Positions 9 to 59,866 of a stretch of DNA of 64,000 bases are shown piece by piece (position 1 is the stretch's first letter; each line of letters starts with the position of its first letter). Under the pieces are notes generated by a model, which ran no database searches, had not been told where the DNA came from, and saw only the letters and a list, made by a program, of their open reading frames with translations. This DNA comes from Candidatus Lachnoclostridium stercoravium (GTDB taxonomy: Bacteria; Bacillota; Clostridia; Lachnospirales; Lachnospiraceae). The DNA lies in the NCBI GenBank assembly GCA_019118365.1, contig DWZA01000091.1:1-64000 (forward strand), in the 5' to 3' direction. Made by a program: the position numbers and the translations under genes.

Positions 9-548
9 ATGGACGACTATATTCCATTTAACGAGTTCTTTATCATACCTTATCTGCTGTGGTTTTTATACGTAGGCGGAGCGATCCTTTATTTCTTCTT
101 CACTGACAAGAAGAGCTATTACCGGCTGTGCGCCTTCCTTTTTATCGGCATGACCATAAGCCTGATCATCTGCACAGTCTTTCCAAACGGAACTGCTTTC
201 CGGCCTGCGATCAACCCTGAGAAAAATATTTTCTCCTGGATGGTATTCCATCTGTATCGTACGGATACCTGTACCAATGTATTTCCAAGTATCCACGTGT
301 TCAACTCCATTGGAGTCCACCTCGCTGTTATGCACAGTGAAAAGCTTAGCGGCAACCAGCTGATCCGGACCGGATCCTTTATCCTGATGGTCCTCATATG
401 TCTCTCTACTGTATTTTTAAAACAGCACTCTGTACTGGATGGCTTTGGTTCCATCACCATGGCATACTTCCTTTACAGCGCTATATACAGCAAGGCATAC
501 GGGTACAGCCGCCGCAAGGCAGCAGCAGCCAGAAAGGCTTTAAGCTGA
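9..548 (+). CDS. PAP2-superfamily phosphatase, C-terminal part (frame appears to continue upstream of the window)
   Basis: Membrane protein with PAP2-like motifs FPSIHVF and KQHSVLDGFG. Confidence 0.7.
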   Translation: MDDYIPFNEFFIIPYLLWFLYVGGAILYFFFTDKKSYYRLCAFLFIGMTISLIICTVFPNGTAFRPAINPEKNIFSWMVFHLYRTDTCTNVFPSIHVFNSIGVHLAVMHSEKLSGNQLIRTGSFILMVLICLSTVFLKQHSVLDGFGSITMAYFLYSAIYSKAYGYSRRKAAAARKALS

Positions 549-8331: not shown

Positions 8332-9404
8332 TATTCATTTCCCTCCATCATCTTTAAGAAACGGTCAAACAGGTAACTGGAGTCCTGAGGGCCTGGGCAC
8401 GCCTCCGGATGGTACTGGACAGTGAAAATATTTTTTCCTGTGTACTTCAATCCCTCATTGGTGCCGTCGTTGACATTGACAAATGCAGGCACGGCAACCG
8501 CAGGATCCAGGCTCTCTGTATCCACCGCGTATCCATGGTTCTGGGATGAAATGTAAACTCTTCCTGTCTCCAGATCCTTTACCGGGTGGTTGCCGCCTCT
8601 GTGGCCGTATTTCAGCTTGTAGGTATTGGCTCCTGTAGCCAGCGCCATCAGCTGATGTCCCAGACAGATCGCAAAGATCGGAACATTGGAGTCGTACAGC
8701 TTTCTGATCTCCCGGATGACCTCCACATTCTCCTTGGGATCCCCAGGACCGTTGGAGAGCATGATGCCGTCCGGAGAAGAGCTTAAGATCTCTTCCGCGC
8801 TTGTATCGGAAGGATATACCGTCACCTGGCAGCCTCTTTTATTTAAAGAACGGGCGATATTTTTCTTCGCTCCCAGATCCAGAAGGGCTACTTTCTTACC
8901 CTCTCCGGGAAGAACGTACTTCTCTTTTGTGGTGGTCGCCTTTACCACTCCCTGGACAGAATATTCTTTCATCCGTCTTACGGCATCCTCCAGATCATAA
9001 TTTTCATTGGTGGTGATCATGCCGTTCATGGTTCCTTTTTCTCTTAATATCTTCGTAAGGGCTCTTGTATCGATTCCGCTGATACCTGGGATGTCGTGGG
9101 ACTCTAAGAAATGCTGGATCGTATCCTCGCTTCTGAAATTGCTGGGGATTCGTGATAATTCTCTGACAATATAGCCGTCCGGCCAGGGCTTTAAAGATTC
9201 CATATCTTCATGGCAGATGCCGTAATTACCGATCAGGGGATAGGTCATAACGACCGCCTGTCCTGCGTAAGAAGGATCCGTCAATACTTCCAGATAACCG
9301 GTCATAGATGTGTTAAAAACGATCTCGCTGATCACTTCTCTGGGAGAACCGATGCTCGTCCCCTGGAATACGGTTCCGTCTTCCAATACCAAAAATGCTT
9401 TCAT
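8331..9404 (-). CDS. carA: Carbamoyl-phosphate synthase small subunit
   Basis: [38 protein letters not shown]. Confidence 0.97.
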
Positions 9405-9500
9405 AGGGTACCTGTCCTTTCCTTAGTTATCGAAAAATGCCTAAATTGAATAGATTATACACGATTCGACGAGGTTTTTCAACTGAAATTTTGAAAATAC

Positions 9501-9641
9501 TTCAGCCGTGCACCAGGATATATGATACAGAGCGTTACAAGCTTGCTTGTAAAAGCGATTTGACATATATCCTGGCATAAGGATGACATCCAGGGCTTCT
9601 TGTCAGCACATTCTGTGCTGGCAAGAAGATACACGGCTGAA
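9501..9641 (-). repeat. Dispersed ~141-bp structured repeat 'R1', copy 1 (inverted relative to copies 2 and 3)
   Basis: ttcagccgtg...cacggctgaa terminal inverted repeats; near-identical to 12431..12570 and 59726..59866. Confidence 0.95.
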
Positions 9642-9655
9642 CTTATCAATGCCAT

Positions 9656-9832
9656 CTGAGCGCCGTTCTGTGTGCAAACACGGCGATCGGGGCGGCTTTG
9701 CTGCGCCGCCTATCACAGCCAGAGGAGCGAAACTCACCCTCACGGGTTCAAACAGCGCTCCTCTGGCCGCGCTATGCTCGCAAAGCCACGCCCCGATTTC
9801 GCCGAATCATTTGCCCACAGAACGGCGCTCAG
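9656..9832 (+). repeat. Structured element 'S', copy A (~177 bp, multi-stem)
   Basis: Perfect 17-bp outer stem ctgagcgccgttctgtg/cacagaacggcgctcag; nested cggcgatcggggcg/cgccccgat-ttcgccg, ggcggc/gccgcc and gccagaggagcg/cgctcctctggc stems. Confidence 0.9.
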
Positions 9833-10082
9833 ACGGCTATTGCTGTTTTCTGCGGAATTCCTCTCAATCAAGCGTATCTATGAAATGTCATGGCAAGCTA
9901 TGCTCGGCAAAACCGCGCAGATCCTGCAGAATATTTTCCGATCAGTCAGGGAAATCTCTATTCTGCAGCTATCTCCAAAGTTTCTCTCATAAATATGCCA
10001 GAAGCCTGGTTTAACCACATATAGAAAACCTCTTCACTTTATCTTTTTAAAAGAGATTCTACAGCAAATAGCGACTGCTCTC

Positions 10083-10258
10083 AAAGAGCCATCCGGCAGG
10101 CAAACGATTCGGCGAAATCGGAGCTTAGGATTTGCGAGCATAGCGCAGGCTAAGGAGCGTTGTCTGAGCCCGTAAGGGTGAGTTTCGCTCCTTAGCCTGT
10201 AATAAGCGGCGCAGCAAAGCCGCTCCGATCGCCGTGTTTGCCCGCCGGATGGCTCTTT
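10083..10258 (-). repeat. Structured element 'S', copy B (~176 bp, inverted relative to copy A)
   Basis: On minus strand: aaagagccatccggcgggcaaac ... gtttgcctgccggatggctcttt; conserved core shared with copy A and compensatory stem differences. Confidence 0.9.
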
Positions 10259-10276
10259 AAAAGCGATGCCTATTTT

Positions 10277-11176
10277 CTAAATCGCCTGCTTCAGCGCCCC
10301 TTTCTCATCGGTCTTCAGGCAAATTTCCCCTTCAAACATGCTTCCGTCTCCGGTCAGCCGGTACAGCTCGCCTTTCCATACGATCCACTGGTCCCTTGCC
10401 ATAGCGCCGTTTTCCTGGAGGAAGTACCATTTTCCATCGGAACCGGTCTTCCAGGTATTGGAAACCATCATCCCCGCCCCGTCGAACCAGTACCAGTATT
10501 TTCCGTCCTGATACCAGTCGTTCGTCACTGGTTCTCCTGTATTTCCCAGGTAAAATCTCCAGCCGCCGTTTTCATTGTACCAGCCGGATTTCTTTTCCGG
10601 CTCCTGAACACTCAGATTGTAGTAGAGAGCGATGGTGTCTGCCTCCGCCTTTGCCAGCCTGTCCAGATTTTTTTCGTCCAGGAGCCATCTGGCGATCTCT
10701 GTATTAGTGTGGAAGGAATGCTCCAGGATCAGCCCCGGCGTTCCCACGGCTGTCGCGCCCCGGAGGACTCCGTAATAATCGCCGTTCTGACCTCTGCGCT
10801 TTTCGATCCTGGCCGGCTGCTTCGTATGCATGGCGGTTTCCACGCACTGGGCCAGAGCCATGCCGATGCCGTCCGCGCTGCCGTTGATGGCGCACAGAGC
10901 CGCCGGATAATCCACATGATCGTTTACTCCCGCCCCTATGGCGTTGGAATGGTCGGAAATAAAGAGATCGCAGCCTTTGGAAGCGGCGCCTCTTGCGTAC
11001 AGCCCCATATCCTGGCTCTGGCTTTCCCTGGTAGTGATCACCTGGATCCCCAGCTCTTCCAGGTATTTCTTCTGCAGAAGATGAAGCTTCCAGGTCATCA
11101 CTGATTCATAATATCGTTTGTCCGCCGGGCTCTGGTTGTATCTTCCGTAGTGGCCTGCATCAAGACAAATCTTCAT
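10277..11176 (-). CDS. N-acetylmuramoyl-L-alanine amidase with C-terminal cell-wall-binding repeats
   Basis: ICLDAGHYGRYNQSP, ISDHSNAIG, LEHSFHTNTEIARWLL; C-terminal GWYNENGGWRFYLGNTGEPV / DGKYWYWFDGAGMM / DGKWYFLQENGAM repeats. Confidence 0.88.
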   Translation of the reverse strand: MKICLDAGHYGRYNQSPADKRYYESVMTWKLHLLQKKYLEELGIQVITTRESQSQDMGLYARGAASKGCDLFISDHSNAIGAGVNDHVDYPAALCAINGSADGIGMALAQCVETAMHTKQPARIEKRRGQNGDYYGVLRGATAVGTPGLILEHSFHTNTEIARWLLDEKNLDRLAKAEADTIALYYNLSVQEPEKKSGWYNENGGWRFYLGNTGEPVTNDWYQDGKYWYWFDGAGMMVSNTWKTGSDGKWYFLQENGAMARDQWIVWKGELYRLTGDGSMFEGEICLKTDEKGALKQAI

Positions 11177-11292: not shown

Positions 11293-11364
11293 GGCCTATT
11301 GGTCAAGCGGTCAAGACGCCGCCCTCTCACGGCGGAAACCCGGGTTCGATTCCCGGATAGGTCA
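11293..11364 (+). tRNA. tRNA-Glu (anticodon CTC)
   Basis: ggcctat...ataggtc acceptor stem; ccgcc-ctctcac-ggcgg anticodon arm; cccgggttcgattcccgg T arm; no encoded CCA. Confidence 0.95.
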
Positions 11365-12397: not shown

Positions 12398-12430
12398 GTG
12401 GGTACGGCTGATACAACAAAAAAGTATCAG

Positions 12431-12570
12431 TTCAGCCGTGTATCTTCTTGCCAGCACATTTTGTGCTGACAAGAAGCCCTGGATGTCATCCCTATGCCAG
12501 GATATATGTCAAATCGCTTTTACAAGCAAGCTTGTAACGCTCTTTATCATATATCCTGGCGCACGGCTGA
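12431..12570 (+). repeat. Structured repeat 'R1', copy 2 (inside element 1)
   Basis: ttcagccgtgtatcttcttgccagcaca...catatatcctggcgcacggctga. Confidence 0.95.
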
Positions 12571-13248: not shown

Positions 13249-14751
13249 ATGAATGACCAGTTAATATCTGCCGCCCTTTACATTCGGGTAAGCACAGAAA
13301 AGCAGGAAGAACTCTCTCCCGATTCCCAGAAACGCCTGCTGCTGGAATACGCAAAGGGACATAGTATGACTGTATCTCAGGAACATATCTACATAGAAAA
13401 CGGCATATCCGGACGGAAAGCCGACAAACGGCCGAAGTTTCAGGCGATGATCGCCGCAGCCAAATCGGAGGAACATCCTTTTGACGTGATCCTTGTGTGG
13501 AAATTTTCCAGATTCGCCAGGAACCAGGAAGAGAGTATCGTATACAAGTCCATGCTGCGGAACAAGTGCCGCGTAGATGTAGTTAGCATTTCAGAACCGC
13601 TGATCGACGGCCCCTTTGGCGGACTGATCGAACGCATCATCGAATGGATGGATGAGTTTTATTCTATCCGCCTGTCCGGGGACGTGACCCGCGGCATGAC
13701 GGAAAACGCGCTTCGCGGCGCGTATCAGTGCCGCCCGCCTCTTGGCTACCGGATCCCTTATCATAAAGCGCCTCCGGAGATCATCCCTGAAGAAGCCGAG
13801 ATCGTCCGGATGATCTTCGACAAATATGTTAATGACCGAATGAGCATCTTTGCCCTTACCAAATACTTAAACAGCCTCGGCCTTAAAACGAACCGGGGAA
13901 ATCCATTTGAGAAGCGCGCCCTGGAATACATCCTGCAAAATCCCGGATATGCCGGGGATATCCGCTGGAACCGTACAGTCCATGGGACCAAAGAAGTACG
14001 GGATCCTTCTCAGTGGATCATCCGTCCCGGCCATCATCCTGCGATCATCAGTAAAGAACTGTTCCTTGCCGCCCAGAAGCGTTTTCACTCTGAACACCAT
14101 CCAAAGAATGCCAAACCGGCTGAAGCCGCAAAGCACTGGCTTTCCGGGCTTTTAAAATGCCCCTCCTGCGGCCGCTCTCTGTCTTCCTGCGTTATGCATC
14201 GAAAGACTGCTCCTGATACCTTTTCTTTCCAGTGCTGCGGCTATCGAAAAGGCAAATGCAGCCACAACTGTTATGTAAGGGAAGAAGAGATCGCCCCGGC
14301 AGTGTTAAAAGCTCTGGAAGACGCGGTCCGGCTCTGCAATGTAAATTATGTGGTACGGAAATGTCCTGACGGGAAGTATGAGAATGCAGAGCTGGCAACA
14401 CTGAAAAAGAATCTGGAACGGATCCGCCAGCGGGAAGCCCGCATGCGGGAAGCTTATCTGGAAGGGATCGACACGAAAGAAGAATACCGGAGAAATAAAG
14501 AGCTCCTGCAAAAGGAACGTGCCGGATTGGAAGATCAGATCGTCCGCCTGGATCAGGCTGCCTCAGATAAAGGCTCCGGCGGCGCCCGGATGATCATCCC
14601 GATCAGCAGCATTCTCGACATTCTGAAGTCTGACCAGTTCACCATGCAGGAGAAGAATACAGCCCTGAAAAGTATTGTTGAACGGATCGTTTTTGATAAG
14701 GGATCTCTGCACATCGATGTAGATTATTATCTGCCCGAATCCCTGCTGTAA
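13249..14751 (+). CDS. Large serine recombinase (resolvase + recombinase + zinc-ribbon domains)
   Basis: ALYIRVSTEKQEELSPDSQ, VWKFSRFARNQEES, GYRIPYHKAP, KCPSCGRSLSS; stop 22 bp before the right junction. Confidence 0.95.
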   Translation: MNDQLISAALYIRVSTEKQEELSPDSQKRLLLEYAKGHSMTVSQEHIYIENGISGRKADKRPKFQAMIAAAKSEEHPFDVILVWKFSRFARNQEESIVYKSMLRNKCRVDVVSISEPLIDGPFGGLIERIIEWMDEFYSIRLSGDVTRGMTENALRGAYQCRPPLGYRIPYHKAPPEIIPEEAEIVRMIFDKYVNDRMSIFALTKYLNSLGLKTNRGNPFEKRALEYILQNPGYAGDIRWNRTVHGTKEVRDPSQWIIRPGHHPAIISKELFLAAQKRFHSEHHPKNAKPAEAAKHWLSGLLKCPSCGRSLSSCVMHRKTAPDTFSFQCCGYRKGKCSHNCYVREEEIAPAVLKALEDAVRLCNVNYVVRKCPDGKYENAELATLKKNLERIRQREARMREAYLEGIDTKEEYRRNKELLQKERAGLEDQIVRLDQAASDKGSGGARMIIPISSILDILKSDQFTMQEKNTALKSIVERIVFDKGSLHIDVDYYLPESLL

Positions 14752-59634: not shown

Positions 59635-59725
59635 TTACTCCCGGACTTTTCGCCGTGCGCCCAGTTAGTTTTTCCTTGCAAAGAATAATCGGAGATAGTA
59701 TAATCCATAGGTATTCTTATATCAG

Positions 59726-59866
59726 TTCAGCCGTGTATCTTCTTGCCAGCACATTCTGTGCTGACAAGAAGATTGGGATGTCATCCCTATGCCAGGATAT
59801 ATGTCAAATCGCTTTTACAAGCTTGCTTGTAACGCTCTTTATCATATATCCTGGCGCACGGCTGAA
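59726..59866 (+). repeat. Structured repeat 'R1', copy 3 (TIRs extend to 13 bp, 59723..59869)
   Basis: cagttcagccgtg...cacggctgaactg. Confidence 0.95.

What the first reader, a model, noticed from the sequence alone, without database searches (positions are those of the whole stretch)
9656..10258. Inverted pair of ~175-bp multi-stem elements with extensive compensatory base changes
Copy A (9656..9832) and the reverse complement of copy B (10083..10258) share loops and junctions (gcaaacacggcgatcgg, gcggctttgctgcgccgc, gagcgaaactcaccct-acggg, cgctatgctcgcaaa, ccgatttcgccgaatc) but differ in their stems with pairing preserved. The outer stem is ctgagcgccgttctgtg/cacagaacggcgctcag versus agagccatccggcgggcaaac/gtttgcctgccggatggctct (one G-U). 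The inner stem is gccagaggagcg/cgctcctctggc versus caggctaaggagcg/cgctccttagcctg. The mid stem is ...cggGgc/gcCccg versus ...cggAgc/gcTccg. There is no coding potential. Covariation between two copies suggests selection on structure, either a structured RNA or a hairpin-recognised mobile/REP-like element. I do not recognise the family.
Basis: seen in the sequence. Interest (0 to 1): 0.82.

Follow-up and report, generated by a model that had tools for sequence, protein, structure and literature searches.

The report
Cross-phylum palindromic DNA hairpin repeats
The two look-alike hairpins are copies of a scattered, apparently mobile palindromic DNA repeat, present about 30 times in this gut bacterium and recognisable by its hairpin-tip motif in several bacterial phyla; its loops stay fixed while its stems change in matched pairs, and what moves it is unknown.

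Summary
Both hairpins fold at z about -12. A covariance model built from 23 copies in the same genome has 43 of 59 pairs with changes on both sides. The genome holds about 30 full copies; the model finds the element in 21 of 299 sampled genomes of the family. Its apical loop, AAACUYRCC..GGYUCRRACA, lies at the tip of similar long hairpins in Proteobacteria, Nitrospirae, Desulfobacterales and others, usually in several copies. No Rfam family matches. The evidence favours a DNA-level, mobile, MITE/ERIC-like palindrome over an RNA gene. In the variable stems G-U and A-C oppositions are about equal (123 vs 104 in the outer arms), so neither strand is favoured. Orientation to neighbouring genes is random (22 sense, 27 antisense). 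Sister species have none to two copies and empty sites without the arms. A core of about 131 bp is nearly identical (97-98.5%) in two copies whose arms are unrelated. At one orthologous locus the core is inverted between sibling species, and arm changes there are paired. REP/RAYT membership fails: the required transposase is absent from this genome and from a complete genome with 30 copies. What mobilises the element is unknown. Verdict: new variant of a known kind.

The parts
9650..9837 (+). Copy A: complete palindromic element (outer arms, internal loops, apical hairpin)
   Evidence: fold z -12.3; CM match 9659-9827, 167.6 bits
9674..9814 (+). Copy A core, GCAAACACGG...CGAATCATTTGC: the part conserved between copies
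   Evidence: matches to other copies run about from query base 25 to 166; alignment
9730..9754 (+). Copy A apical loop motif AAACTCACCCTCACGGGTTCAAACA
   Evidence: cross-phylum pattern match; conserved columns
9718..9767 (+). Copy A apical hairpin (stem gccagaggagcg/cgctcctctggc plus its loop)
10083..10258 (-). Copy B: second palindromic element, inverted relative to A
   Evidence: fold z -11.9; CM match 10087-10256, 179.8 bits
10161..10185 (-). Copy B apical loop motif AAACTCACCCTTACGGGCTCAGACA
9838..10082 (.). Spacer of the A-spacer-B composite; this spacer has no other copy in the genome, although related composites at other loci share theirs
   Evidence: (one match)
9897..9983 (+). Probable remnant: right half (GCTATGCTCGGCAAAACCG...) of a third element inside the spacer, cf. 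the A+/B+/B- triple of L009
   Evidence: BLAST of pairs, window 338-453 against L009 501-614 at 69%

Best explanation
A and B are two copies of a dispersed, non-coding, apparently mobile palindromic DNA element with a modular build: a conserved core of about 130-140 bp, whose fixed internal loops and apical loop sit between free-to-vary stems, inside locus-specific complementary arms of about 20-80 bp. Shown: many copies per genome, conserved loops, paired stems, patchy presence, empty sites in sister species, insertion of core plus arms, core inversion at an orthologous locus, decoupling of core and arm history. Inferred: the folded hairpin (ssDNA or cruciform) is the form acted on, the loops are recognition marks for an unidentified enzyme acting in trans, and stem complementarity is restored by copying or repairing one arm from the other, which gives 'compensatory' changes without a G-U bias. 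A and B with their spacer form a composite of which related copies occur at other loci.
For: About 30 full copies in this genome. Only one of eight same-genus genomes has a match, a single copy. Species of another genus: 30 copies in one, 0-2 in the other 22. Pattern present in 2 of 399 genomes of the phylum, with 11 and 5 copies, reversed-pattern control 0 everywhere. Orthologous sites without the element are short (65-134 bp against 365 bp at three loci; 158-365 bp at the fourth) and lack the arms. Composite A-spacer-B shared by L009, L010, L012, L013, L014, L020 at unrelated sites. Core 98.5% identical over 131 bp with unrelated arms, L110/L320 (97% by global alignment); Spearman of core against arm identity 0.09, p 0.18, 210 pairs. 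Core inverted at a colinear locus, L308/L313 against L312/L309; 7 of 55 pairs changed on both sides there. Outer arms G-U 123 against A-C 104; G-U sense/antisense 109/97 outer, 42/56 apical. Co-directional sites 22 sense, 27 antisense; convergent 22, divergent 6. Cross-phylum apical stems >= 8 bp: 70 of 81 against 0.4% at random positions.
Against: No transposition was observed, no target duplication was defined and no mobilising protein was found; genes between inverted pairs in other genomes had no transposase match, only a group II intron RT in one. In L308/L313 and L305/L306 the element is at least as conserved as its flanks, which suggests a host function or recent conversion. Flipping and core/arm decoupling could be gene conversion among resident copies. 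The empty sites come from genomes about 70-80% identical in the flanks, so arms could have been lost rather than never present. The tRNA wobble control was very small (G-U 3, A-C 0).
Confidence: 0.62

Rival explanations
1. A family of structured RNAs (sRNA or 3'-UTR element of ERIC/NEMIS/YPAL type) in which selection on RNA pairing produces the covariation and the loops bind a protein or are processed, for example by RNase III.
For: 43 of 59 pairs covary; loops conserved across distant genomes; many copies start within about 40 nt of an upstream stop codon; at orthologous loci the element is as conserved as, or more conserved than, its flanks. ERIC in Yersinia is reported to act as an RNA hairpin (PMC2267715).
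Against: A-C oppositions are as frequent as G-U in variable stems; 22 sense against 27 antisense in co-directional sites; core orientation flips at an orthologous locus; no Rfam match.
Confidence: 0.2
2. Bidirectional transcription terminators or insulators at gene ends: the long hairpin ends transcripts from both sides, so both strands are equally constrained.
For: Convergent 22 against divergent 6 sites (two-sided binomial about 0.004, copies in one gap not independent); no wobble bias; some copies end in A-run/T-run, e.g. L022, L023.
Against: Does not explain loop conservation across phyla, patchy multi-copy distribution, empty sites or the decoupling of core and arms. The simple terminator scan finds none in 9400-10500.
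Confidence: 0.1
3. REP/REPIN repeats mobilised by a RAYT (Y1 tyrosine transposase).
For: Hairpin DNA, paired inverted copies, intergenic, moderate copy number.
Against: Y1_Tnp (PF01797) absent from the own genome (94.5% complete), from G313 (complete, 30 copies) and from G129; units are 160-300 bp rather than 20-40 bp (PMC3733652).
Confidence: 0.03

Closest known systems
ERIC/IRU (127 bp) and YPAL (about 168 bp) elements of enterobacteria
   Same: Intergenic, multi-copy, one long imperfect hairpin, no coding sequence; YPAL and ERIC families are listed with predicted folds in PMC2267715
   Different: As I recall, those keep one consensus and are confined to gamma-proteobacteria (own knowledge). 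Here stems are rewritten from copy to copy while loops stay fixed, and the apical loop occurs in several phyla
REP / REPIN / BIME (GTAG- and CGTC-tagged repeats)
   Same: Palindromic, intergenic, inverted pairs common; some REP dimers are nested inside longer palindromes (PMC3733652)
   Different: 4-8 times longer with an internal-loop core; Y1 transposase absent from carriers; the GTAG/CGTC end tag was not systematically examined
MITEs
   Same: Dispersed, non-coding, empty sites in relatives, composite copies moved as a unit
   Different: No target duplication or fixed terminal repeat could be defined; arms differ between copies with near-identical cores
Integron attC sites (recalled, not tested)
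   Same: Works-like resemblance: hairpin in which structure and a few unpaired bases matter while stem sequence drifts
   Different: No gene-cassette array; inverted pairs; no integrase test made

Membership tests
REP/REPIN (RAYT-mobilised repeats) | RAYT (Y1_Tnp, PF01797) in the carrier genome | tested here: not met
   0 in G000, G313, G129, G287; G313 is a single contig with 30 copies
REP/REPIN (RAYT-mobilised repeats) | 20-40 bp palindromic unit | tested here: not met
   Units of 160-300 bp; definition from PMC3733652
REP/REPIN (RAYT-mobilised repeats) | GTAG or CGTC tag at one end | not tested
   CGTC occurs inside some cores (ACACGTCRATTTTC) but the unit ends were not examined for a tag
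Any Rfam RNA family | Score above the family's gathering cut-off | tested here: not met
   No match for the window, the 9400-10400 stretch at permissive E or 11 loci with distant members
Structured RNA under strand-specific selection | Excess of G-U over A-C in variable stems on the functional strand | tested here: not met
   123 against 104; 109/97 and 42/56
ERIC/YPAL-type palindromic intergenic repeat | Intergenic, multi-copy, single long hairpin, non-coding | tested here: met
   sequence homology to ERIC or YPAL was not tested
MITE | Empty sites in relatives | tested here: met
   at 70-80% flank identity
MITE | Terminal inverted repeats of a known transposase plus target duplication | tested here: inconclusive
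   No consistent termini or duplication seen in aligned flanks; no partner transposase identified

The most novel reading that the evidence does not exclude
A cross-phylum class of modular DNA-hairpin elements in which a conserved looped core is moved, flipped or swapped between arms by a still unidentified hairpin-recognising recombinase or replication-linked process, with stem complementarity restored by arm-to-arm copying.
Probability: 0.35. Interest if true: 0.85.

Novelty: new variant of a known kind. Interest (0 to 1): 0.66.

Why it matters
Covariation is the standard evidence for functional RNA. Here heavy covariation comes without the expected wobble bias, so such elements could be mistaken for RNA families and illustrate how palindrome upkeep in DNA may mimic RNA selection. 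The shared apical loop in several phyla implies a common recognition factor that has not been identified; finding it would define a new mobility or hairpin-processing system, and the near-identical cores in different arms make this testable.

Tried and rejected
Rfam: only tRNAs at gathering score. Viral contigs and plasmids: no match. Literature search for the motif strings and for palindromic repeats in the carrier genera: nothing. RAYT association: rejected. Insertion into a pre-existing terminator or palindrome: rejected at the loci examined, because empty sites lack the arms. Autonomous transposon between inverted pairs in Denitromonas and Zoogloea: mostly unclassified or ordinary genes, no DDE, HUH or integrase match, one group II intron RT. 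Sense-only 3'-UTR element: first impression, dropped after the wider count. tRNA wobble control: too few sequences to carry weight.

Full report
OBSERVATION. Copy A (9650-9837) and copy B (10083-10258, reverse strand) fold into single long rods with several internal loops, at z-scores of -12.3 and -11.9. A lies upstream of carA, separated from it by an unrelated 143-bp repeat; B lies directly after the stop codon of an N-acetylmuramoyl-L-alanine amidase gene (identified by eye from the ORF). The own genome (3.0 Mb, 109 contigs, 94.5% complete) holds about 30 full copies and several shortened ones. Across 23 copies, 43 of 59 consensus pairs show a change on both sides with pairing kept, while the loop columns are nearly invariant. 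A covariance model R1 was built from these.

SPREAD. With R1, 8 other genomes of the same genus gave one match in total. Of 299 sampled genomes of the family 21 were positive, two of them complete genomes (where at most 9 candidates per genome were scored, so copy numbers there are lower bounds). In one such genus, G313 has 30 copies and the other 22 genomes have 0-2. Twelve named genomes have 1-21 copies each, reversed-pattern control 0 in all. In 399 genomes of the own phylum only two are positive, with 11 and 5 copies, control 0. In 81 such hits the motif is directly enclosed by a stem of at least 8 Watson-Crick pairs in 70 cases, against 0.4% of random positions in the same loci. So the motif marks one structural class, usually absent and, when present, usually multi-copy. 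Beyond the apical loop, homology of the non-Lachnospiraceae elements to R1 was judged by eye from folds, not by a model.

DNA OR RNA. If pairing were selected on one RNA strand, G-U should exceed A-C on that strand. It does not: aligned outer arms of 80 elements have 2889 Watson-Crick pairs, 123 G-U, 104 A-C and 286 other mismatches; by folding, 109 against 97 in outer and 42 against 56 in apical stems. The conserved part folds better on the strand opposite to the one I call sense (72 of 80; 73 of 81 in the other phyla), so if there is a functional single strand it is probably that one. Orientation relative to flanking co-directional genes is 22 against 27. Convergent gaps outnumber divergent ones 22 to 6. 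Gene calls there are simple ORF calls, and copies sharing a gap are not independent.

MODULAR BUILD AND MOVEMENT. In this genome A-spacer-B occurs as a composite at L009, L010, L012, L013, L014 and L020, spacer included, at unrelated sites; the window's own spacer has diverged from theirs. In G313 the similarity between copies usually stops at the core: L110 and L320 share 131 bp at 98.5% while their arms, about 45-60 bp and each internally complementary, are unrelated. Over 210 pairs core and arm identity are uncorrelated (Spearman 0.09, p 0.18). Sister species without the element have short gaps and neither arm, so the arms came with the insertion or arose with it. At one orthologous locus four sibling species carry the element; flanks are colinear at about 90-95% identity, but the core is inverted between two pairs of species, and arm changes are paired (7 pairs changed on both sides, 3 on one side only). 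Between close relatives the element is as conserved as the flanking genes or more so.

INTERPRETATION. The simplest reading is a mobile or formerly mobile palindromic DNA repeat whose hairpin form matters. Loop conservation implies recognition; paired stem change without wobble bias fits arm-to-arm copying or repair of folded DNA. The mobilising enzyme is unknown. RAYT transposases are absent from several carriers, including a complete genome with 30 copies. Genes lying between inverted pairs in Denitromonas and Zoogloea gave no transposase match, only a group II intron reverse transcriptase in one case. An RNA role on top of this, as reported for ERIC and NEMIS (PMC2267715), is not excluded.

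NOVELTY. Long palindromic intergenic repeats are a known kind (ERIC, YPAL, REP, MITE). Sequence-fixed loops in several phyla, copy-specific paired stems, and cores that flip and combine with different arms are, as far as these searches reach, not described; literature searches for the motif returned nothing, but only open-licence papers were searched.

Noticed in passing
window 9501-9643 (also 12429-12570 and 59724-59866): A separate, very abundant 143-bp repeat with terminal inverted repeats TTCAGCCGTG/CACGGCTGAA and inner hairpins: 40 scored copies at 91-100% identity, 195 candidates in the genome. MITE-like.
   Followed up: partly
window 13249-14751, with a tRNA gene at 11293-11364: A 500-aa ORF that reads like a large serine recombinase, downstream of a tRNA gene and another copy of the 143-bp repeat; possibly an integrated mobile region.
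   Followed up: no
L080 1013-1075, L082 1059-1140, L085 1069-1152, L019 1324-1410, L024 about 1500-1545: Shortened copies that keep complementary arms but have lost the apical part of the core, as expected from deletion within palindromes.
   Followed up: partly
L160 1866-2882 and L284 1651-3087: In Denitromonas ohlonensis an inverted pair of elements brackets a single gene for a protein of 207 or 335 aa, probably membrane-bound by eye, without Pfam or PADLOC match; cargo between hairpin pairs is possible.
   Followed up: partly
G328 contig ends, L106: Eight weak R1 matches (E 2e-4 to 7e-4), several within 450 bp of contig ends; may be another repeat family.
   Followed up: no
L286 1675-3042: A group II intron reverse transcriptase gene beside an element in Zoogloea; group IIC introns are known to insert next to hairpins (own knowledge).
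   Followed up: no
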